A DNA stretch of 37,399 bases from Candidatus Wallbacteria bacterium. GTDB taxonomy: Bacteria > Muiribacteriota > JAQTZZ01. The notes below the pieces were generated by a model. That model was not told the DNA's origin and ran no database searches. It saw only the letters and a list, made by a program, of their open reading frames with translations. Below, piece by piece: positions 2,301 to 29,712 of the stretch (positions within the stretch are counted from its first letter, which is position 1; each line of letters starts with the position of its first letter). A program made the translations under genes and the position numbers. Location of the stretch: assembly GCA_028687545.1 (NCBI GenBank), contig JAQTZZ010000037.1:1-37399 (forward strand). The letters are read 5' to 3'.

Positions 2301-5300
2301 GTGACTGAATCTGAAAGCAGATCCCCAAATGCTGATCAACAATTGAAGTTGCTGCTGAATTCAGAAGACGAAGCTGAACGCAAGCAAGCTATAGTTCAGC
2401 TGTCCCGAAACCCAAGACGGGAAAATTTCCTGATTCTGCAAAAAATCTCAGATTTCGATGAATCAGTTGAAGTGCGTTTTTATGCTAAAAAAGCCCTGAA
2501 TATTCTGAAAAGCAGAATCACGCCCAGATTGACCGAAAAAGAGACGAGTGCGATCGGAACTGCTGAAATCGGAAAATTCATAGCTGGAAACGTTGAAAAC
2601 GAACAGGCTGTTCAGATCATTCAATATATTGTCAACAATGATTTAAAAGAAACACTGCCTGGCTTGATCACTGTTTTAAATCGGGAAAAAGACCCGAATA
2701 TCATTTCCACCTTGTTGATTGCAATCGGCAAATTCGGAAGTGAGAAAGAGATTAAAATCATTAATCCGTTTCTTTCACATGAAATCCCTAGAATTAGAGC
2801 CAATGCAATAGACGCTCTGGAATTGATCGGCAGTGTACGGGCTTATCCTCTGGTGATTTCGAAGCTGGAGGATAATGACAACAGGGTAAGAGCAAATGCC
2901 GTACGATTCGTCAGGGAACTCGGCGGTGTGAACACTCAGAAAATATTACGTGCCATGGCGGGCTCTCCAGGGAGCGCGATGCGCGCTTCGGCAGCATATG
3001 CGTATCAGTTTTATCCGGCTGAGGAAAATGTTGATCCATTAGTTCTGCTCCTGGAAAGCAGTGAGGTCACAGTCCGCAACAATGCGCTCAAAACATTGTC
3101 GATTTTCAAAAGCAAAGGGATTAAAAAAGCGCAGAGAGTACTGAAAAAATTCGAACCTGTGGCTGAAATCAAAGCTGAAAGCATGGAAGGGGTTGAACCT
3201 GAAACAGAGAACAAAGCAGGAACATGGAGCAGCTTAAAAGAGGAATTAACTAATCCTGATCTGGGTAAAAGGTTGAAAGCGATCACAGAAGCCGTGGAAA
3301 AAGGCTCCTGTGGCGCGATATTGTCAGAGCATCTGGCAAAAGAAAAAGATGTGATGGTAATTGCCACAATTATCATCGGACTGGGGAAACTCCAGTACAA
3401 AAAAGCACTGCCAGTTCTGGTCGGTTATCTCAAGGCGGAAGACGGCCGCTGCCGCGCAAATGCAGTAGAGGCATTAAGACTGATCAATGATAAAGATAAT
3501 TTAAAAGAAATAATCCCACTTCTGAAAGATGAAAACAACCGGGTCAGGGCGAACGCGATCTTTGCATTAAAAAGAGAGAAAATCCCTGAAACATTCACTA
3601 CCCTGCTGGAGATGGTCAATTCTGAAGATATGCTGATGCAGCTGTCAGCGATTTATGTGATTATGAAACTTGAGGATCCCGATTATTATGAATTGTTAAT
3701 TGATCTTGGAAAATCAAGATATCCTGAAGTCTCAAAAAAATCACGCGACAGCATTAAAGAACTTGAAATTCAGGGCATAAAAGTAGAAGATAATGCAGCA
3801 GCCGCACGCTCAAACCGTGTGTTTAAGATGTTTACCATTTCGACATTCGACCTCAGGGAAGAGCTCAATGCACTTCAGTCAGGAGTTTATCCGAAGTTAA
3901 AAGCGCTCTGCCAGGAACATGGCTATCGTTTTGAAGTGTGCGACCTCGACTTTGGAATCTCTGATGGAGCAATTGATCAACAGACAATGAAGAGCCGCCT
4001 TGAAGAAATCAAGCGCTGCCAGGAAATCTCGCCTCCTCCGTATTTCCTCATACTGCTTGGGGATCGTTACGGAATTCGGCAGCTGCCTGCTGAGATCCCG
4101 GAAAGCGAATTCACAAAAATTGTGGATAAGTTCCTCCTGAAAAGAAAAAGCGGTGATTGCACTGATGAAGGCCTTAATCTGCTTGGTTCGTGGTACAAGC
4201 GCGACCTGAATGCTCTGTATCAAAAAGACCAGGATGCAAAACCTGAGTTTTTATGGATCCTGCAGCCTAGAACTGGAGAGTATCTTGATCAGAAAGTCTG
4301 GGAGAAGGTGGTGCAAAAGCTTTGCGAGCTGTTCAAACTGTTGACAGATGATTTCAAAGAAGACCGCCGCCTGTCTTACAATGCTTCAGCCGCTTCCCGG
4401 GAAATTATCGACTGTGCCTTGAAAATCCGGGATAAACAGAAACATCTGTTTTGTTTCCTGAGAAAAATCACAAATCTGGAAGAATTGATTAAAGACCTGA
4501 ATTCAGCAGACTCCAAAGCCAGGGATTTCATTGACACAAAAAACGATATCTTTGATCAGGACTCCCACGATTTATCTGTTGAGGTCCAGAACCAACTCTA
4601 TAAAACTGTTCCTCAAAACATATTCGAATACGAGGAAAAATGGGAAAACGGCAGGCTGACTGACGGTCAGGTCAGCAAATTATGCGCTGACGCTTATCAG
4701 GCTCTGTCCTCTGCAATCTCTGCTAAAATTACACCAGACACTGAACCAGGGTCTTTGGCTTCAGAGATCCGGAACCATGAAAACTTCCGCATTGACAGTG
4801 AGATGGACTTTACAGGCCGCACAGAATACCTGAAGTTTATTGCAGATTATCTGAAGCTTAAAGTTCATCAAAAATCACCTTTAGCGATTTACGGAAAGCC
4901 AGGCAGCGGGAAATCGGCCCTGATGGCACATGCGATTAAAAATGAGCTCCTCAGAATCAGTCATGGCGTGACTGCCAGGCAATCGACAGTACACCCCCGC
5001 AATGCTATGAAAGGGGATAATCCGAATCCCCAGATAATTTACCGCTTCCTGGGTACAACTCCTGACTCTTCAAACATCCGATCCATGCTGGAAAGTATCT
5101 GCCGCCAGATTGCACAACTTTACACTCTTGACGAAAATACGATCCCCAGTGATTATGATGGCCTTGAGAAAGCATTTCCGGAATTGCTAAAATCCGCTGT
5201 ACCTGCCAAACCGCTGATCATATTTTTAGACGCCCTGGATCAACTGTCAAACCAGGATGCATCTGAATTGAGGTGGCTGCCTGCTGAATTACCGGAAAAT

Positions 5301-7550
5301 GTCAGGCTGGTAGTTACTACATTGGATCCAAGCGGATTCGAATCTGATGTCAAAGTTCAAGCTGCTGCAGATGCTGACCAATACTTAGAAAACCTGAAAA
5401 ATAAAATCCCGGAAAGCAACATCAGGGAACTGGGTAAAATGTCCGGTTCTGACGGCAAAGCATTACTGGACTGCTGGCTGAATAAGGCAAACCGGCAATT
5501 GCTCGACTGGCAGGAAAAACTGATTCTGAAGAGATTCAAAAATAACGGCAACCTGTTTTACTTGAAAATTGCTTCTCTGGAAGCTGAACGCTGGAAATCG
5601 TATACCACAACTGAAGAGATAAAGTTAAGCTCTGATCTCACAGGCATTATCAGAGACATGTTCGAGCGTTTGTCATTGCCTTCGAATCATGGGAAAATGA
5701 TCGTTTCCAGCGTACTTGGTTATCTTGCCGCCTGCCGCAACGGTTCCGCTGAAGATGAACTGCTGGAAATTCTGGCATCTGATGAGGAACTCCATCAATA
5801 CATCTCTCAGGAAAACAGGTATCAGAAAATCCTGAAAATTCAAAGCTCAGATAGTAAAAAAGCCAGGAGCGAAATCTCTGCAGCGATCTGGAAACCGCTT
5901 TATTTCGATCTGGCTCCATATCTGACCGGGTGCATGGCCGAAGGAACATTTTTAATCAGATTTTCCAACAGGCAATTCAGCCAAGTGGCCAAAGAAATGT
6001 TTCTGACAGAATCCGTGAAAAAAAAACGGCATGCAGTGCTGGCCAAATATTTTTTGAGTCAACCTCACTACCTGGAAAAAGCTCTTGAATCTGAAAAACA
6101 CAATTCAGTAAGAACAGTCAATTTCAGGAAATGTACCGAACTCCCCTATCAGCTGAGGAAAGCCCGAATGTTCGCTGAAAGTGAAAAAAACTTAACAGAC
6201 CTTGATTTCATAGAAGCTAAAAACCGGGGAGGAATGACTCAGGATCTGATTCAGGATTATGATTTTCTGGGAGGGTGCAAAAGGCCTGATCCACCTGTCA
6301 GGACCGCCTGGCAGCATAACGGTATATTGGGTATCAATTGCGTGTTCTGCAATGCCTGGTTTGCAATTGGCGAACTGGAACTTGATACAGTGATCAGCTG
6401 CAGGCATTGCGGCTCCAAAATTAAACTCAATCTTTTCATCATCAATGCAAAGTGGGAACCTAAACCCCCGGATAATGACCGCATGATTAAATTAAAGGAT
6501 TCCAACGGGGAAAATACAGAGTATGATTTTTCTTCAGCTTTCCATGAATTAGAGGACTTTGTACGATCCAGTGCACTGATCCTCTCCAAAAAGCCCGAAT
6601 GCATCTATCAGGCCATCTGTAAACCGGGTAATAAGATGCTTTTAAAACCCGCCTGCAAACTCCCGAAATCATGTTTGATGACCTTTTTCGGGCATACTGA
6701 CTGGGCTCAGGCTTGTGGTTTTTCTCCTGACGGGAAACTTGTGGTTTCAGGTTCCGCAGATCGCACTTTAAAAATCTGGGATGCAGGCTCTGGACAACTG
6801 CTGACCACACTTACCGGGCATACCGGCGGGGTCAATTCCTGCTGCTTCTCTCCTGACGGGAGGCGGGTGGTTTCATGCTCAGATGATAACACTCTGAAGA
6901 TCTGGGACGTTTCCGGACAACCACTTTTCACACTTACCGGGCACACTCACTCAGTTACCTCCTGCTGCTTCTCTCCTGACGGAAAGCTGGTGGTTTCAAG
7001 TTCTTATGATCATACCCTGAAAATCTGGGATGCAGATTCAGGACAGCAGCTTTGCACTCTTTCCGGACATACCGGGGAGATTGATTCCTGCTGTTTCTCT
7101 CCTGATGGGAAGCGGGTAGTCTCAGGTTCCTGGGATCACACCTTGAAAATCTGGAATGCAGGCTCGAGCCAGGAACAGGCCGCACTTGCCGCTCACACCA
7201 ATGTGGTAACTTCCTGCTGTTTCTCCCCTGACGGGAAGCGGGTGGTTTCAGGCTCTTATGATCAAACCCTGATGATCTGGGATGCGGACTCAGGACAGCA
7301 GCTGGCTACACTTACCGGACATACCAGCGGATGTAAGTCCTGCGAGTTCTCGCCTGACGGGAAGAGAGTGGTCTCAGGTTCTAATGATAACACTCTGAAG
7401 ATCTGGGATGCGGCCACCTTTAAAGAACTGGCCACTCTTACGGGGCATGGAAGCCCGGTTAATTCCTGCAGGTTCTCGCCTGACGGGAATCGGGTGATAT
7501 CAGGCTCCAGTGATAACACCCTGAAAATCTGGGGTGCAGGCTCAAGTTGA
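2301..7550 (+). CDS. giant STAND protein: HEAT - TEP1/NWD-like domain - NACHT - zinc ribbon - WD40
   Basis: A 1749-residue multidomain protein starting at GTG, with AAGG 8 bases upstream. Residues about 20-500 are HEAT-like repeats with the recurring RVRANA(V/I) motif. Residues 508-603 resemble the DUF4062-like N-terminal domain of eukaryotic TEP1/NWD1/NPHP3 proteins (start FKMFTISTF, middle VCDLDFGI, end LLGDRYGIRQLPAEI). The NACHT NTPase follows, with Walker A GKPGSGKS at 865-872, then RFLGTT, Walker B IIFLDALDQL and a VVTTLD sensor strand. A CxxC/CxxC zinc ribbon has its cysteines at 1347, 1350, 1367 and 1370. Seven WD40 repeats fill 1464-1749. STAND proteins are switch-like ATPases that oligomerise when the repeat region senses a ligand. 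Role here is unknown; defence or signalling are both plausible. No signal peptide. It has its own promoter and sits alone between rlmD and a secreted protein gene. Confidence 0.85.
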   Translation: MTESESRSPNADQQLKLLLNSEDEAERKQAIVQLSRNPRRENFLILQKISDFDESVEVRFYAKKALNILKSRITPRLTEKETSAIGTAEIGKFIAGNVENEQAVQIIQYIVNNDLKETLPGLITVLNREKDPNIISTLLIAIGKFGSEKEIKIINPFLSHEIPRIRANAIDALELIGSVRAYPLVISKLEDNDNRVRANAVRFVRELGGVNTQKILRAMAGSPGSAMRASAAYAYQFYPAEENVDPLVLLLESSEVTVRNNALKTLSIFKSKGIKKAQRVLKKFEPVAEIKAESMEGVEPETENKAGTWSSLKEELTNPDLGKRLKAITEAVEKGSCGAILSEHLAKEKDVMVIATIIIGLGKLQYKKALPVLVGYLKAEDGRCRANAVEALRLINDKDNLKEIIPLLKDENNRVRANAIFALKREKIPETFTTLLEMVNSEDMLMQLSAIYVIMKLEDPDYYELLIDLGKSRYPEVSKKSRDSIKELEIQGIKVEDNAAAARSNRVFKMFTISTFDLREELNALQSGVYPKLKALCQEHGYRFEVCDLDFGISDGAIDQQTMKSRLEEIKRCQEISPPPYFLILLGDRYGIRQLPAEIPESEFTKIVDKFLLKRKSGDCTDEGLNLLGSWYKRDLNALYQKDQDAKPEFLWILQPRTGEYLDQKVWEKVVQKLCELFKLLTDDFKEDRRLSYNASAASREIIDCALKIRDKQKHLFCFLRKITNLEELIKDLNSADSKARDFIDTKNDIFDQDSHDLSVEVQNQLYKTVPQNIFEYEEKWENGRLTDGQVSKLCADAYQALSSAISAKITPDTEPGSLASEIRNHENFRIDSEMDFTGRTEYLKFIADYLKLKVHQKSPLAIYGKPGSGKSALMAHAIKNELLRISHGVTARQSTVHPRNAMKGDNPNPQIIYRFLGTTPDSSNIRSMLESICRQIAQLYTLDENTIPSDYDGLEKAFPELLKSAVPAKPLIIFLDALDQLSNQDASELRWLPAELPENVRLVVTTLDPSGFESDVKVQAAADADQYLENLKNKIPESNIRELGKMSGSDGKALLDCWLNKANRQLLDWQEKLILKRFKNNGNLFYLKIASLEAERWKSYTTTEEIKLSSDLTGIIRDMFERLSLPSNHGKMIVSSVLGYLAACRNGSAEDELLEILASDEELHQYISQENRYQKILKIQSSDSKKARSEISAAIWKPLYFDLAPYLTGCMAEGTFLIRFSNRQFSQVAKEMFLTESVKKKRHAVLAKYFLSQPHYLEKALESEKHNSVRTVNFRKCTELPYQLRKARMFAESEKNLTDLDFIEAKNRGGMTQDLIQDYDFLGGCKRPDPPVRTAWQHNGILGINCVFCNAWFAIGELELDTVISCRHCGSKIKLNLFIINAKWEPKPPDNDRMIKLKDSNGENTEYDFSSAFHELEDFVRSSALILSKKPECIYQAICKPGNKMLLKPACKLPKSCLMTFFGHTDWAQACGFSPDGKLVVSGSADRTLKIWDAGSGQLLTTLTGHTGGVNSCCFSPDGRRVVSCSDDNTLKIWDVSGQPLFTLTGHTHSVTSCCFSPDGKLVVSSSYDHTLKIWDADSGQQLCTLSGHTGEIDSCCFSPDGKRVVSGSWDHTLKIWNAGSSQEQAALAAHTNVVTSCCFSPDGKRVVSGSYDQTLMIWDADSGQQLATLTGHTSGCKSCEFSPDGKRVVSGSNDNTLKIWDAATFKELATLTGHGSPVNSCRFSPDGNRVISGSSDNTLKIWGAGSS
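6690..7550 (+). repeat. tandem WD40-coding repeats, seven units of about 126 bp
   Basis: Seven tandem units of 41 or 42 codons (the last cut to 35) encode GH...SCCFSPDGKRVVSGSxDxTLKIWDA-type blades. Unit starts fall at residues 1464, 1506, 1547, 1589, 1631, 1673 and 1715. The DNA itself is conserved between units (for example ttctc(t/g)cctgacggga recurs in most), which points to recent duplication or gene conversion. Confidence 0.9.
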
Positions 7551-7591: not shown

Positions 7592-9634
7592 TTGCCAGTT
7601 CTCCTTAAACTGAAAGCGGATTGGATTTTTTTCCAAATGCGCATAATGCTGCTCATTTTCATTTTACTACTGTTATCTAAGACCTTAGTGATTGCATCCA
7701 CCCATTCTGCCCAGCTGGAACAGATGCTTTCAGAACGCACTGCACCGGGGACGGACTGGGACCGGAAAGTTCAGGTCATCAGCTGCTCACCCCAGTCTGA
7801 GAATGCAGTCGGGACTTTGAAAATCACTCTGAACGGTCTTCTGAAATGTGATAAAACTGATCCTCAGAAACTTCACAGACAGGGAATGCTGTCAGTTCAG
7901 TGCCTTGACCTCTGCTCAGTCGACAGCCTGGAACTTGAAACATCTGGAACCGTCAATTTCGACCTGGTTTCAATCTGCAGCAGGGACCTCTATGGAAACC
8001 GCTCCGAACTGCCTGTTCCAATAAAAAAAGAGAGCGGCAGTCTGGTGACCATCCTCAATCCATTGTTCAGCGAATATCTGCTCAACCAGGCCGGAAAATA
8101 CATCAGATCAGGAGTCGATGCCGTCTGCCTGCTCAACACGGGTATCCTGGGATCGGCGGTTTCAACCCGACCTGGAAGCGCTGGTTTTTCGTCCTGCGAG
8201 ATCAGCGCGTTTGAACAGCATCTTCTGGAGATCGGATTTAAAAATCTGCGCGATTACGTGACTTCGGTCTGCTTCCATGACAGGTGGCCTACGGCGGAAG
8301 TCCTTTTAGAGCACTGCAGTCCAGGTACTGATGATGACTTTGAAGTCACCGGGTTCCTGCGTTCCACAGGAGAGGTTTACGCTCCGGCACGAGAAATCGT
8401 TTTCAATGAATACAGGAAAAATCTGGAAAACCTGTACTTTCGGGAAACCTGCTCCCTGATCGCTGAGATCAGAAAAATAGCCATAAAATCAGGCGGAAAC
8501 GTAAAAATCCTCGCATCCATCCCTGGTCTGGGCGGCCACACCGGAATTTCCCCGCTCCAGTCGCTGGTGTTTGCTCCGCTGCTGGACGGACTTATCTATG
8601 AACTGGATCTTCCGCTCCCTGCAGATCAGATGAAGTTTCATTTTCTCTCGCCCGGAAAATTCGCTGCTTCCTATAAACTGGGCCGGGCAGTAACAGATGG
8701 GATAAACGCAGCCCTGCCGGGTGAGATCTATCATCCGTATCTCTCAAGGCGGGGCAGTTACAGTAATTATCTGAAACTCATGTTTTGCGAGGCTGCTTCC
8801 TGTCAGAGCAGTCTGATCCTGCCTGATTTTCCCTCTCCTACTGCGGGATTTAACGGTCTGGAGCAATACACGGCTTTCGTGCGCGACAATCGCTGGATTT
8901 ATGAAGGCAGCACCTGCCGGAATCGGCTGGCGGTTTTATACTCCAATCAATCAGTGCTGCAGGATCCTGACGCCCATTTTTCCTATCTGGGAATCAGCCA
9001 GGCCCTCACAGAGCTTAATCTCCAGTTCGATACCATCTATAGCACAGACGAGCGTTTCAGCCGGGATGAGCTTCTTTTCCTGGGGTCCTATGAATGCCTG
9101 ATCGTTCCTTCCTCAGTCAGCCTCACTAAAAACCAGTATCAGGCTCTGCACGATTTCCTGCTCTCAGGAAAAAAAGTATTTTTTACCAATCTTAGAGAAG
9201 AGCGATTCAAGCATTTCAAGAATGCCTTGTCACTTCCTGATTTAGGTCTTTCCTATCTCGAGGGAGACAGAGCTGCAGCACTCCAGGAAATAAAGATGTC
9301 GCTCTGGGATGCTCCCAGGCCGTATCTGACGGTCTCAGCCCGGGATATCACCGTATTTCGTCATTTCAAGCCGGATCTGAACTCTCTTTGTGTGCATTTT
9401 TTGAATTATCAATACAACCCTGACTCCGACAGCTGTGCCTGCCGGAATTTTCTGCAGGCCGAGATCGAACTGCCGGATTACTTTTGTTCCTGCTGGAAAG
9501 TGGAATACTACAGGCCTGAAAGCCTGTTCCCTGAACCGCTTCCTTTCACCAGAGAGGGTAATCTCGTGAAATTCACACTTCCCTCGTTGAATCTTTATGG
9601 TGTGGCAGTGATCAGTCTGGTTCACTGTAAATGA
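7592..9634 (+). CDS. secreted protein with glycoside-hydrolase-like architecture
   Basis: 680 residues, starting at TTG with AGGAGG seven bases upstream (7579-7584), which decides this start. A hydrophobic segment at about 17-35 (MLLIFILLLLSKTLVIA) is a signal peptide or anchor. The C-terminal third (about 440-560) looks like the trimerisation/amidotransferase-like domain of GH42-type enzymes: RLAVLYSNQSV, then YECLIVPSSVSLTKNQYQAL and LLSGKKVFF. The middle (about 150-420) alternates strands and helices as a TIM barrel would, with a conserved-looking LIYELDLPLP strand. I cannot name catalytic residues, so activity on a sugar is inference. It lies 41 bases behind the STAND gene with no terminator between, so it may be cotranscribed. 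It is rich in cysteine. No terminator is visible downstream. Confidence 0.5.
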   Translation: MPVLLKLKADWIFFQMRIMLLIFILLLLSKTLVIASTHSAQLEQMLSERTAPGTDWDRKVQVISCSPQSENAVGTLKITLNGLLKCDKTDPQKLHRQGMLSVQCLDLCSVDSLELETSGTVNFDLVSICSRDLYGNRSELPVPIKKESGSLVTILNPLFSEYLLNQAGKYIRSGVDAVCLLNTGILGSAVSTRPGSAGFSSCEISAFEQHLLEIGFKNLRDYVTSVCFHDRWPTAEVLLEHCSPGTDDDFEVTGFLRSTGEVYAPAREIVFNEYRKNLENLYFRETCSLIAEIRKIAIKSGGNVKILASIPGLGGHTGISPLQSLVFAPLLDGLIYELDLPLPADQMKFHFLSPGKFAASYKLGRAVTDGINAALPGEIYHPYLSRRGSYSNYLKLMFCEAASCQSSLILPDFPSPTAGFNGLEQYTAFVRDNRWIYEGSTCRNRLAVLYSNQSVLQDPDAHFSYLGISQALTELNLQFDTIYSTDERFSRDELLFLGSYECLIVPSSVSLTKNQYQALHDFLLSGKKVFFTNLREERFKHFKNALSLPDLGLSYLEGDRAAALQEIKMSLWDAPRPYLTVSARDITVFRHFKPDLNSLCVHFLNYQYNPDSDSCACRNFLQAEIELPDYFCSCWKVEYYRPESLFPEPLPFTREGNLVKFTLPSLNLYGVAVISLVHCK

Positions 9635-23883: not shown

Positions 23884-26598
23884 TTAGCCGGCAGATTCAT
23901 CAGTATTTCCTGCAATGATAGGAAGAATCACGCAGAAATCCGTATGACTATTGAAATAGTAACAGGCCGGATCATTCGAGGAACGGATGAATCGTTCCAG
24001 TTTATTATCGCCCAGGCTTTTCCGTAATCTGGTAATGATCGCAGTCAATGTGGAACGGTCTTTGTCGAAATCATACTTGCGACCCCAGAGCTTTCTAAAA
24101 AGAGCTACCGGCTGGACTAAACGACCGGGTTTCACCACGAATTCGTATAAGAGGGGGACCTGTGTCTGTTTACCGAAAAAATTAACCCGCTTCCCGGAAA
24201 GCAGCAGTTCCTCTCCGGAATAATCAATGTAAATCTCATACTGTTCTTTTTTTTCTCTGATCCGTTTCAGTTCTGTCCGTCCGATCTCTTTATGTTTGAC
24301 CAGTCTGGTATGGAGAATGAATTCCTTCTTTTCAGGCGTAGAAAAGTTATCCAGAAACCAGTTGAATCCTTCCTCAATTTTATTTTTTCGTCTTTCCGGT
24401 TGCTCAGCAAGCAGTTTCTCGTATCGTGCGGTAGATTCGGAAATCAAGTCCTGATTTCCAACGAATTCCAATACCCGGATCTTAAGAAACAACACTTTGA
24501 TCAGGATGTCCTGATGCTGAGACCCGCAATATTCTTCAACTTGAGCCAGTAATTTCCCGGCTTCTTTCCATCTGCCCTGGAAAAGTTTGAGCTGTGAATA
24601 AATCAGCAGCAGCATGTTTTTACGCTCAGGATTGTTGAACTTCTCTAGAACTTCTAAGGCAACCTTCAGATGTTCTTCCGATTTTTCGTATTCCAGCAGG
24701 CCGAGATAAGCTTCTCCCGTGATTTCATTGAGAAATGACCGTTCGAATACCCAGTTGTTCCGCTCGATGAGGACTAAAGCTTTGCTTACAATCCTGATGG
24801 CTTTCTTGAATTCACGGAGATGATTGTAAATCAACCCCTTACCGGCATAGTTGTAAACCATGCCGTGAGGATTGCCGGTCTTCCGATTCAGGATCAGACT
24901 TTCAGAAAAGCAGTCGTCAGCTTTTGTAAAATCAGCCATCTGGATGTGAGCATTCCCTTTGTTTTGAAGTAGCAGGGCCAGTGACCCCAGAATATTGTGC
25001 CTGCGGTAAATCTCTTCAGCCAGGGAAAATTCCTCAAGCACGCCAGGATAATCCTCTTTATAGTAATGCAGCAGTCCATACCTGACATGAAAATTGGCTT
25101 CCAGTTGATCATCAACGCCTTTTTCCAACTCTAACTTAGCCTGCAGCATGCATTCTTCAGCTTTGCCCATGTCTCCAAGCTGTACATGGCACATCGCCAG
25201 GTCTATGAAAGCGTCCAGCCGCCTGCCTTCCGGGTGGCCGATCCTTAGGGTTTCGTTGTAATATTCAACTGCTTCCGGGTATTTGCTCTGATTAAAATAA
25301 ATCTTGGCACGCTGCAGAGCGGCAACTCCACTATGTTCCAACTGATCAACGACTTTCAGGGCTTCCTGATAGCGATGCCAGTAGATCAGGAATCCAGCCT
25401 TGCTTTGCAGAAGTTCCTGCCTGTAATGTGTTCCACAGAATTTCAGGGCATCTTCCAGCAACTGGTAAACACTTTCGGTCATGTCGCCGAGGGTCAGACG
25501 CTTGTCGCTTACCCGGGTCATCACTTCAGCAGCCATTCTAAGCTCTCCAGCCCTGTGAAAATGATAATAAGACTCGCACAATTCAGGTACTTTATCATTT
25601 CCAGCTCTAGCCAGATAATGTCCAACATCCTTGTGGATCTGAGCCAGCTGTGTAGGGCTCAACTGAGATCTGGCGTATTCGCGTATCAGGTCATGGACAT
25701 AAACTCCATTCCTGGCAGTTTCCAGGAGAAACTTGTCAGTCAGCCTTTTCTGTGCATTCCGGTGCCTTCGGCCTGAAAGAGACGGAAGTTCTACAGTATT
25801 GACTGGTATTCGCAGAACGGAAAGTGTTTTCAGAAGATCCTGTTCAGCCGGTTCTAGTGTTTCCCACAACAAATCGAGCAGATATTGACCCTGTTTTTCA
25901 CGGAATTCGCCGGACTGCCGCAGAAGTTCTTCAACATTGTGGCCACCTTCCACCAGGAGGCTGGCAAACAGCTTCAGCGAAAATGGATGTCCCTTGAATT
26001 CTTGAGTGATCCTGTGTTTCTGATCAGACGACATTTCTATCCCATGCAAATTCAGCATCTGTTCGAGCATTGAAAACGATTCTTCGATTTCCAGGCCATC
26101 CAGCAGGATTTCATTTGTGTCTGAGCGCCGATCAAGGTCAAGTGAGACGCGATTTCTGGAAGCGATGATCAGTTTTGCCCTTTGGAAAAGCTTCAGAGAA
26201 TACTCGATCAGCTGCAGCGAATTTTCATTTTCCACTAATTGGAAATCATCGATGCACAAAATCAAGGCATTGTCCTCGAGAATTTCGACGATTTTCTCCG
26301 GGGTATACCCGGTTTGAGACAGGTATTGCTTCTTTCCTGTCAATTGGATGATTTTCTGCAGAATGCTGGCCTGGAGGTCAGCCCACGTCCACCCGGACCG
26401 GCATGCTACCCAGATCAGTTTTTCCCCATAAGTTGCATTTTTTTTCAAGGAATTGGCAAAAGTCAGGACCAGTGCTGTTTTCCCCATTCCGGCGATCCCT
26501 GAGACCAGGGAAACCTTTTTTTCTGAAAAAAGGGAAGTCAGCCTGGCCAGTTCTTTTTTTCTACCGCAGAAACCGTGTGGTGCAGACGGTATCATCAT
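23884..26598 (-). CDS. STAND transcription regulator: NB-ARC - TPR - C-terminal OmpR-type winged helix
   Basis: 904 residues. The N-terminal NB-ARC-type NTPase has Walker A GIAGMGKT (34-41), Walker B ALILCIDDF, a KLIIASRN sensor strand, the GHPFSLKL motif and a winged-helix domain ending in VYVHDLIREYA. A long TPR region (about 340-740) follows, typical of a ligand- or partner-sensing arm. The C-terminal end (about 787-884) is a Trans_reg_C winged helix: KPGRLVQPVALFRKLWG, then ITRLRKSLGD and CYYFN. This resembles MalT/AfsR-type regulators in plan, but the DNA-binding domain is OmpR-like and at the C-terminus. It probably switches on transcription when the NTPase is activated. It precedes the C25-like protease and lies among five TTGTAACTGG promoters, its likely targets. 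Weak Shine-Dalgarno; probably leaderless. Confidence 0.82.
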   Translation of the reverse strand: MMIPSAPHGFCGRKKELARLTSLFSEKKVSLVSGIAGMGKTALVLTFANSLKKNATYGEKLIWVACRSGWTWADLQASILQKIIQLTGKKQYLSQTGYTPEKIVEILEDNALILCIDDFQLVENENSLQLIEYSLKLFQRAKLIIASRNRVSLDLDRRSDTNEILLDGLEIEESFSMLEQMLNLHGIEMSSDQKHRITQEFKGHPFSLKLFASLLVEGGHNVEELLRQSGEFREKQGQYLLDLLWETLEPAEQDLLKTLSVLRIPVNTVELPSLSGRRHRNAQKRLTDKFLLETARNGVYVHDLIREYARSQLSPTQLAQIHKDVGHYLARAGNDKVPELCESYYHFHRAGELRMAAEVMTRVSDKRLTLGDMTESVYQLLEDALKFCGTHYRQELLQSKAGFLIYWHRYQEALKVVDQLEHSGVAALQRAKIYFNQSKYPEAVEYYNETLRIGHPEGRRLDAFIDLAMCHVQLGDMGKAEECMLQAKLELEKGVDDQLEANFHVRYGLLHYYKEDYPGVLEEFSLAEEIYRRHNILGSLALLLQNKGNAHIQMADFTKADDCFSESLILNRKTGNPHGMVYNYAGKGLIYNHLREFKKAIRIVSKALVLIERNNWVFERSFLNEITGEAYLGLLEYEKSEEHLKVALEVLEKFNNPERKNMLLLIYSQLKLFQGRWKEAGKLLAQVEEYCGSQHQDILIKVLFLKIRVLEFVGNQDLISESTARYEKLLAEQPERRKNKIEEGFNWFLDNFSTPEKKEFILHTRLVKHKEIGRTELKRIREKKEQYEIYIDYSGEELLLSGKRVNFFGKQTQVPLLYEFVVKPGRLVQPVALFRKLWGRKYDFDKDRSTLTAIITRLRKSLGDNKLERFIRSSNDPACYYFNSHTDFCVILPIIAGNTDESAG

Positions 26599-28179: not shown

Positions 28180-29712
28180 ATGAAGCTCAGCATCGTATTC
28201 ATCTTAGCAATCGCTTTAATGGTCTCGTTCGTCAATCCAACAACAGCAGCAACCAAAAAACCCTGGACATTCATGGTCTACCTCGATGGCGACAACAACC
28301 TCGAACCATATGGCATCATGAACGTCAATCAGATGGAAAAAGTCGGTTCCACCGATGCCACCAATGTTGTAGTGCTCTTTGACAGGGCATCCGGATACGA
28401 TTCCACCAACGGCAACTGGACAGATTCCAGGATCATGTATATCACCAAAGACAATGACACCAGCATCATGAATTCCAAAGTCGTAAAGAATTGCGGCGAA
28501 CTTGACATGGGTTCCGGAAAAACCCTCACAGATTTCGTGCAGTACTGCAAGGACAATTATCCGGCCGAGCATTATTTTCTGACTCTCTGGAACCATGGCG
28601 CAGGCTGGAAAAAGAAAGGCGGAAATGATGTGATGAGGGGCGTCTGCTATGACGACCAGAGCGGCAATCATATGGACATGGCCTCAGTGGAAAACTCAAT
28701 GGTCGCCATTAAGGGCATACTCGGCCAGAAACTTGATGTGCTCGACTATGACGCCTGCCTGATGGCCATGCTCGAATGCAATTATCAGATCAAGGATACC
28801 GTGGATTACATGACTGCTTCCGAAGAAACCGAACCAGGCGACGGCAACCCATACGAGCTGATGCTCAACGGTCTGACCGCCAGCACAACTCCGGAGCAGT
28901 ATGCGATTCACATTGTTGATTCTTATAAAGAATATTATTCCAGCGGTTCTGAAGGTGTAACCAAGTCCGCAGTGGACCTTTCCAAAATCCAGGCTCTGAC
29001 CACTGCTGTGGCTGACGCTGCCAATGCCATGAACGGCAAGATCAGCGCTGTGAAGACTGCCATCACTACAGCCAGGAAGAGCGTGCAGGTCTTCTACGAT
29101 GCAGACTATGCGGATCTTTCCCACCTCTGCTCCACAATCAAAACCACTGACACCACAATCAAACCCAAGCTGGATGCAGTAGTTGCAGCGGTCAAGGCAG
29201 CAGTCATCAACAACTGCACAGTCGGCACTGCAATGAAGAACGCTACAGGAATCTCAATTTATTTCCCAAGTTCGAGCGGCAGCTATCTGACAAAGTATGA
29301 TGGTCTCTCATTCTGCACAGCCACAAAATGGAACAAATTCCTCTCAGCCTATTACAAAGGCTCCAGTGTCAGTGTGGAACCTGTAGCCGAAAACACCCCA
29401 GCCGAAACACCGAGCACCAGCGGCAGCTGGTGGGACAACTGGTTCGGCAGTTACACTGCTCTTCAGACAGAGAAGCTGAACCTGATCAATGCCGGCAGGC
29501 TTGAGGAAACCATGGCCATGACAATCGCCCAGAGGGATGCTCAGATGGTGGAAGAAGCCCGCTGCCAGATCGAGACAGCCATAGAGAACAACACCATTCA
29601 CCAGCTGATTGCCAACATCAGCAGCCTGAACGATGATCAGAAACTGGCGGTTGCCCCCGTAGTGGAAGAAATCAAAGCCCAGCTCATCATCGCCCAGTTA
29701 CAGAAACATTAA
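28180..29712 (+). CDS. exported clostripain-family (C11) cysteine protease
   Basis: 510 residues with signal peptide (LSIVFILAIALMVSFVNPTTA). The caspase-like C11 core follows at once: KPWTFMVYLDGDNNLE, catalytic His139 in LTLWNHGAGW, the RGVCYDD strand, and catalytic Cys193 in LDYDACLMAMLE, followed by the typical MTASEETEPGDGNPY. Family members cut after basic residues, often after self-processing. After the core (about 390) come a Pro/Thr/Ser linker and a helical C-terminal domain of about 100 residues, which is not part of clostripain. Secreted degradative or processing role. It has a TTGTAACTGG promoter, a long leader and a strong terminator, so it is a one-gene transcript. Confidence 0.88.
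   Translation: MKLSIVFILAIALMVSFVNPTTAATKKPWTFMVYLDGDNNLEPYGIMNVNQMEKVGSTDATNVVVLFDRASGYDSTNGNWTDSRIMYITKDNDTSIMNSKVVKNCGELDMGSGKTLTDFVQYCKDNYPAEHYFLTLWNHGAGWKKKGGNDVMRGVCYDDQSGNHMDMASVENSMVAIKGILGQKLDVLDYDACLMAMLECNYQIKDTVDYMTASEETEPGDGNPYELMLNGLTASTTPEQYAIHIVDSYKEYYSSGSEGVTKSAVDLSKIQALTTAVADAANAMNGKISAVKTAITTARKSVQVFYDADYADLSHLCSTIKTTDTTIKPKLDAVVAAVKAAVINNCTVGTAMKNATGISIYFPSSSGSYLTKYDGLSFCTATKWNKFLSAYYKGSSVSVEPVAENTPAETPSTSGSWWDNWFGSYTALQTEKLNLINAGRLEETMAMTIAQRDAQMVEEARCQIETAIENNTIHQLIANISSLNDDQKLAVAPVVEEIKAQLIIAQLQKH

What the first reader, a model, noticed from the sequence alone, without database searches (positions are those of the whole stretch)
2301..7550. Bacterial HEAT-TEP1/NWD-like-NACHT-Zn ribbon-WD40 protein
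Residues 508-603 and the NACHT region resemble eukaryotic TEP1/NWD1/NPHP3 proteins in motif order: a TISTF start, a DLDFGI turn, an LLGDRYG strand, RFLGTT and LDALDQL. In front are about 500 residues of HEAT repeats; behind are a CxxC/CxxC ribbon and a seven-blade propeller. Two different solenoid or propeller sensors around one switch is unusual. The protein may be an anti-phage or self-recognition STAND, or a signalling hub. It bears on the bacterial origin of NWD-type NLR proteins.
Basis: partly seen in the sequence, partly recalled or inferred. Interest (0 to 1): 0.75.

Follow-up and report, generated by a model that had tools for sequence, protein, structure and literature searches.

The report
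HEAT-fronted bacterial TEP1/NWD-like STAND receptor
The window encodes one giant bacterial protein that joins a HEAT-repeat scaffold to a TIR-like (DUF4062) enzyme domain, an APAF-1-like ATPase switch and a WD40 sensor, the same core order as the human proteins NWD1 and TEP1; a sister gene in the same genome has the same front and switch with a TPR sensor instead, and the window copy's enzyme domain looks partly decayed.

Summary
ORF 2301-7550 (1749 aa) is HEAT (12-497), DUF4062/TIR-like domain (about 505-740, with a ~95-aa insert), NACHT-winged-helix STAND core (836-1330), zinc ribbon (1347-1371) and seven WD40 units (1459-1745). DUF4062 was recently shown to be a TIR-like NADase in the antiphage system Swarozyc and in human TEP1 (PMC13174449). 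TEP1's catalytic E1008 aligns to E701, and the RYG Arg (R976) is kept. But the window copy breaks 26 of about 105 near-invariant columns of its subfamily, 19 in the TIR-like part, including DLRWG, so its enzyme activity is doubtful. A paralogue in the same genome shares HEAT-TIR-NACHT (62%) but ends in TPRs. DUF4062-NACHT-WD40 without HEAT occurs in many bacterial phyla and one Lokiarchaeota MAG, so the core order is not new. The HEAT front is a ~485-residue module found on other proteins of this phylum; it met DUF4062-NACHT on two separate branches there. The gene is patchy (HEAT-fused form in 2 of 39 phylum genomes) and sits among rlmD, mutS2 and queG, not in a defence island. New variant of a known kind: probably a sensor-triggered abortive or signalling STAND; trigger and output are untested.

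The parts
2301..7550 (+). Whole gene, 1749 aa, GTG start, AAGG about 10 bases upstream
   Evidence: Open frame without stops
2334..3791 (+). HEAT module, residues 12-497
   Evidence: HEAT_2 1.7e-40; 70% identical to the paralogue and 33-43% to N-termini of other phylum proteins over the whole module, with the same ends
3813..4520 (+). DUF4062 / TIR-like domain, residues about 505-740, including an insert
   Evidence: Profile to TEP1 TIR 11gz 4.8e-8; AlphaFold model pLDDT 87
4086..4370 (+). Insert of about 95 residues (596-690) between RYG and the catalytic helix, shared by 25 homologues
   Evidence: Alignments; helices and strands in the model
4401..4403 (+). E701, equivalent of TEP1 catalytic E1008
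   Evidence: Invariant column; TEP1 numbering checked at four residues
4806..5330 (+). NACHT ATPase, residues 836-1010; Walker A 865-872, Walker B 972-982
   Evidence: NPHP3_N 4.4e-10; APAF-1 1z6t by profile 2.7e-8
5331..6290 (+). Winged-helix and helical STAND arm, residues 1011-1330
   Evidence: HTH_NWD1 4e-4, APAF1_C 4e-4; model pLDDT 87.5 matching APAF-1 Z 16.9 and a TPR STAND 6mfv Z 19.5
6339..6413 (+). Zinc ribbon, two CxxC pairs, residues 1347-1371
   Evidence: Homologous ribbons in L084, L085, L099, L128
6675..7535 (+). Seven WD40 units, residues 1459-1745; 126-bp repeats
   Evidence: WD40 4.3e-90, 7 stretches; tandem repeat period 126

Best explanation
It is a STAND receptor. The C-terminal WD40 propeller (TPRs in the sister protein) binds an unknown ligand and holds the NACHT switch shut; ligand lets the NACHT ring assemble and brings the TIR-like DUF4062 domains together, which in active family members cleaves NAD+. 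The HEAT module in front is a phylum-specific scaffold that docks to a partner shared by both sister proteins. Shown here: domains, order, the paralogue with a swapped sensor, conserved E701 and Walker motifs, APAF-1-like model. Inferred: ligand, ring, NADase or its loss, HEAT partner, and the purpose (abortive defence or internal-state signalling). In the window copy the TIR-like domain has probably lost or weakened its activity, so its main output may run through HEAT.
For: APAF-1 is the best solved match of the NACHT profile (2.7e-8), and the model aligns to full-length APAF-1 over 393 residues (Z 16.9), to a bacterial TPR STAND (Z 19.5) and to Avs3 (Z 13.7). The DUF4062 profile finds the TEP1 TIR structure, and E701 aligns with E1008. 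TEP1 and KpSwz are NADases needing this Glu (PMC13174449). The paralogue keeps HEAT (69%), TIR and NACHT but has TPRs. Window-only versus paralogue-only changes at conserved columns: TIR 24:7 (p 0.003), HEAT 12:13, NACHT 8:6.
Against: No ligand, partner or activity is known. R550, W551, R522, S513 and T698 of the family signature are lost, so the NADase step may not operate. The difference in change ratio between TIR and NACHT plus arm is not significant (p 0.29). Foldseek gave no significant hit for the TIR-like model, and its best VIA match, TIR-STING, is only Z 8.9. The surroundings are not a defence island.
Confidence: 0.6

Rival explanations
1. A fully active antiphage NADase of the Swarozyc/TEP1 kind: the propeller senses a phage protein, NACHT assembly activates the TIR-like domain, NAD+ is depleted and the cell dies.
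For: E701 and R589 kept; patchy distribution; other DUF4062 proteins do this (PMC13174449); 4 of 81 homologue neighbours carry TIR_2.
Against: DLRWG and other invariant residues lost in this copy; human NWD1, NWD2 and NPHP3 were inactive in the same assay (PMC13174449); housekeeping neighbours.
Confidence: 0.2
2. A housekeeping or developmental signalling hub: it reads an internal cue and passes it to other HEAT proteins, such as the cyclase-HEAT protein beside the paralogue.
For: The HEAT module is shared with non-STAND proteins (WG repeats, TM/coiled coil); the gene after the paralogue is Guanylate_cyc plus HEAT; chromosomal neighbours.
Against: HEAT-fused form in only 2 of 39 phylum genomes; none found in the nearest relative G001.
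Confidence: 0.15
3. A decaying gene: the window copy is redundant to the paralogue and is drifting.
For: Longer end branch than the paralogue (0.44 vs 0.26); 26 breaks of conserved columns against 0-10 in other members.
Against: 1749 codons open; Walker motifs, HEAT (12:13 changes) and the WD40 units intact.
Confidence: 0.05

Closest known systems
Human TEP1 (DUF4062-NACHT-WD40, vault NADase)
   Same: DUF4062 next to NACHT, then WD40; catalytic Glu aligned; RYG Arg kept
   Different: No TROVE/vWA found; ~95-aa insert; HEAT front; R908 equivalent missing; DLRWG lost in this copy
Human NWD1/NWD2 and NPHP3
   Same: Same order (WD40 in NWD1 and NWD2; TPR in NPHP3, from general knowledge), mirrored by the window gene and its paralogue; Pfam NPHP3_N, NPHP3 and HTH_NWD1 hits; those human proteins were inactive as NADases
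Swarozyc (KpSwz) antiphage DUF4062
   Same: Same TIR-like domain family
   Different: Swarozyc is described with a winged AUX domain that binds phage portal, without NACHT, HEAT or propeller
Prokaryotic DUF4062-NACHT-WD40 proteins (L098, L099, L084, L128, L089)
   Same: Same subfamily with insert, NACHT, WD40, sometimes the same zinc ribbon; 36-45% identity to the paralogue's core
   Different: DUF4062 is at the very N-terminus, no HEAT seen; SAT[EH]QE or similar and DLRWG intact
APAF-1
   Same: STAND core and WD40 sensor; best solved match
   Different: CARD in place of TIR-like; no HEAT

Membership tests
STAND / NACHT NLR-like ATPase | Walker A and B and STAND winged-helix arm | tested here: met
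   GKPGSGKS 865, LIIFLDALDQL 972; NPHP3_N 40.4 bits over cut-off 24.8; model matches APAF-1 Z 16.9, 6mfv Z 19.5
STAND / NACHT NLR-like ATPase | Ligand-driven oligomerisation | not testable with these tools
   Needs protein
DUF4062 TIR-like NADase | Pfam DUF4062 score over the curated cut-off | tested here: not met
   19.6-22.1 bits against 24.7; paralogue 49-52 bits passes. Related by profile and tree, but divergent
DUF4062 TIR-like NADase | Catalytic Glu (TEP1 E1008) | tested here: met
   E701, invariant column
DUF4062 TIR-like NADase | Active-site Arg residues R976 and R908 of TEP1 | tested here: inconclusive
   R976 equivalent R589 kept; R908 position deleted here and mostly S, N, A, E or D in the insert subfamily
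DUF4062 TIR-like NADase | DLRWG motif, invariant in 25 homologues | tested here: not met
   DLDFG in the window copy
DUF4062 TIR-like NADase | NAD+ hydrolysis | not testable with these tools
   Needs assay
TEP1/NWD family | DUF4062-NACHT-helical-WD40 order | tested here: met
TEP1/NWD family | TROVE and vWA domains of TEP1 | tested here: not met
   No such hits in segment scans; HEAT in that place
TEP1/NWD family | Common descent with animal NWD1/NPHP3 to the exclusion of other bacteria | not testable with these tools
   No eukaryotic sequences held
Swarozyc | DUF4062 followed by the portal-binding winged AUX domain | tested here: inconclusive
   DUF4062 is followed by a linker and NACHT instead; no AUX profile was at hand
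Avs / bNACHT defence families | Match to PADLOC models | tested here: inconclusive
   Only HEAT-ARM_XIII on the WD40 part and weak mad8 and WGR hits; fold match to Avs3 Z 13.7 is the shared STAND core

The most novel reading that the evidence does not exclude
The two sister proteins form a matched pair: one catalytic (TPR sensor, near-intact TIR-like domain) and one pseudo-enzyme (WD40 sensor, decayed TIR-like domain) that co-assemble or compete through their shared HEAT module, a bacterial counterpart of paired plant NLRs and of the inactive NWD1/NPHP3 class.
Probability: 0.12. Interest if true: 0.75.

Novelty: new variant of a known kind. Interest (0 to 1): 0.48.

Why it matters
DUF4062 was only just shown to be a TIR-like NADase, tying antiphage defence to human TEP1. 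This locus and its homologues show the human-like layouts (DUF4062-NACHT-WD40 and DUF4062-NACHT-TPR) in bacteria and one Lokiarchaeota MAG, and a natural experiment: one genome, one chassis, two sensors, one TIR-like domain near intact and one eroded. That makes the question of why NWD1/NWD2/NPHP3 lack NADase activity, and what such STANDs do without it, testable in bacterial proteins. The HEAT front offers a lineage-specific way to look for the downstream partner.

Tried and rejected
MADS hits in PADLOC (mad2 on rlmD, mad8 on the P-loop): rejected, the first is RlmD by NCBIfam, the second a generic P-loop hit. Defence-island reading of the window: no support. Phage copies: none found; plasmids: two distant DUF4062 proteins only. 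First genome-contig scan with a two-sequence alignment found nothing; a six-sequence one gave 263 relatives. Reading the catalytic Glu as E603 in PESEF was considered and dropped: the alignment with 25 homologues puts SATxQE at 696-701. An rlmD-mutS2 empty-site test in the nearest relative failed, as mutS2 lies at a contig end and no rlmD was found there. Foldseek of the TIR-like model gave no significant PDB or viral hit; its best VIA rows (TIR-STING Z 8.9) stand little above unrelated folds, so the TIR assignment rests on sequence.

Full report
Observation. The frame 2301-7550 is open for 1749 codons from GTG, with AAGG upstream. Pfam gives HEAT repeats over the first 500 residues, the NPHP3_N form of NACHT above cut-off, sub-threshold NPHP3, DUF4062, HTH_NWD1 and APAF1_C matches in the expected order, and seven WD40 stretches. 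The DUF4062 match alone is weak, but the paralogue scores 3e-13 and a profile of the two finds the crystal structure of the human TEP1 TIR-like domain, 11gz, at 4.8e-8.

What DUF4062 is. A 2026 preprint (PMC13174449, read) shows DUF4062 to be a TIR-like NADase: in bacteria the antiphage system Swarozyc (E97), in man TEP1 (E1008; R908 and R976 also matter). NWD1, NWD2 and NPHP3 were inactive in their assay. I checked the numbering of 11gz at R908, R954, R976 and E1008. Aligned with homologues, TEP1 E1008 (SVTEME) corresponds to SATEQE in the subfamily, SAVAQE in the paralogue and SAASRE in the window protein, that is E701; R976 corresponds to R589. A ~95-residue insert lies between them, so the TIR-like unit ends near residue 740. 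A 26-sequence AlphaFold model is confident (pLDDT 87) and alternates strands and helices, with E701 in the helix that follows the insert.

Switch and sensor. The NACHT profile's best solved match is APAF-1 (2.7e-8). The model of 822-1380 (pLDDT 87.5) aligns to a bacterial TPR STAND (Z 19.5), APAF-1 (16.9), Avs3 (13.7) and NLRC4 (12.9). Both sensors, WD40 here and TPR in the paralogue, are 126-bp repeats. Between WD40 blades the varying residues are mainly positions 6, 7, 9, 25, 27 and 35-38 of the 42; by my own mapping these overlap the hypervariable sites of fungal HNWD receptors (10, 11, 12, 14, 30, 32, 39 in PMC12222747), but blade identity (63% aa over five blades) is below the over 80% reported for those. 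The ribbon is homologous to ribbons in L084 (same place, before the propeller), L099 and L128 (C-terminal) and L085 (end of a short frame).

Paralogue. G000:C2 holds a 1595-aa protein 62% identical over HEAT-TIR-NACHT (69% in HEAT, 64% in the first part of TIR, 62% in NACHT), ending in TPRs. The two form a clade with full support inside the insert subfamily. Next to it is a cyclase-HEAT protein.

Homologues. A genome scan gave 263 relatives, 79 loci kept. The insert subfamily spans Acidobacteriota, Chloroflexota, Planctomycetota, Armatimonadota, Thermodesulfobacteriota, Gemmatimonadota, Actinomycetota and others, and one Lokiarchaeota MAG. All begin at or near DUF4062; most end in WD40, one in TPRs; my HEAT search found no HEAT front, though that local profile was weak. 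A second, insert-less subfamily (SVTxLE) mostly carries TPRs. P0004, of another family in the same phylum, has HEAT-DUF4062-NACHT-WD40 but belongs to this second subfamily, so HEAT met the chassis at least twice in this phylum.

HEAT front. The ~485-residue module is shared end to end (33-43%) with N-termini of phylum proteins that carry WG repeats, further HEAT, or a membrane helix with coiled coil. It is therefore a phylum scaffold and not part of the STAND family proper. That it is the best conserved part between the paralogues suggests a common partner (inference).

Erosion of the TIR-like part. Of about 105 near-invariant columns in 25 homologues the window protein breaks 26 and the paralogue 9; the others, scored leave-one-out on 88-94 columns, break 0-10. 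Nineteen of the 26 lie in 507-716 (S513I, R522L, R550D, W551F, W592I, T698A, G705C and others); E701, R589 and the Walker motifs stay. At columns conserved in most homologues, window-only against paralogue-only changes are 24:7 in residues 500-740 (p 0.003), 8:6 in NACHT, 14:6 in the helical arm and 12:13 in HEAT; TIR against HEAT p 0.03, TIR against NACHT plus arm p 0.29. So the asymmetry in the TIR part is clear, but it is not proven to exceed that of the rest of the STAND core.

Setting. Neighbours are rlmD, an unassigned protein with a signal-like start, mutS2 and queG, then cell-wall and division genes. No defence system was found near the window gene or the paralogue. Around 23 homologue loci, 81 neighbours gave scattered hits only, among them four TIR_2 proteins. 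In the 39 phylum genomes DUF4062-NACHT proteins occur in eight and the HEAT-fused form in two; none was found in the nearest relative, G001. The gene is accessory.

Verdict. A real STAND receptor of TEP1/NWD-like layout with a phylum-specific HEAT front: a new variant of a known kind. Mechanism by analogy: sensor release, NACHT assembly, TIR-like activation. For this copy the last step is doubtful. The origin claim for eukaryotic NWD proteins remains open.

Noticed in passing
window 23887-26598 (-) and 28180-29712 (+): An NB-ARC-TPR protein with a C-terminal DNA-binding winged helix lies 1.6 kb from a clostripain-family (C11, caspase-like clan) protease: a second STAND and a possible protease output in the same window.
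   Followed up: no
window 7592-9634 (+): 680-aa protein directly downstream with a signal-like N-terminus and no Pfam, NCBIfam or PADLOC match.
   Followed up: partly
L040:15933-19001: Guanylate/adenylate cyclase domain fused to HEAT repeats directly after the paralogue; match to the Pycsar cyclase model at 1.3e-9.
   Followed up: partly
L066:5526-11355 (CP069395.1, Chloroflexota plasmid): A DUF4062-NACHT-WD40 protein flanked on both sides by small HEAT-repeat proteins.
   Followed up: no
L089:9025-13275: Lokiarchaeota MAG with a DUF4062 (SVTHQE)-NACHT-WD40 protein; contamination not excluded.
   Followed up: no
L162:6046-8529, L074, L165: Phylum proteins joining the same HEAT module to WG repeats: a lineage-specific HEAT family of unknown role.
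   Followed up: partly
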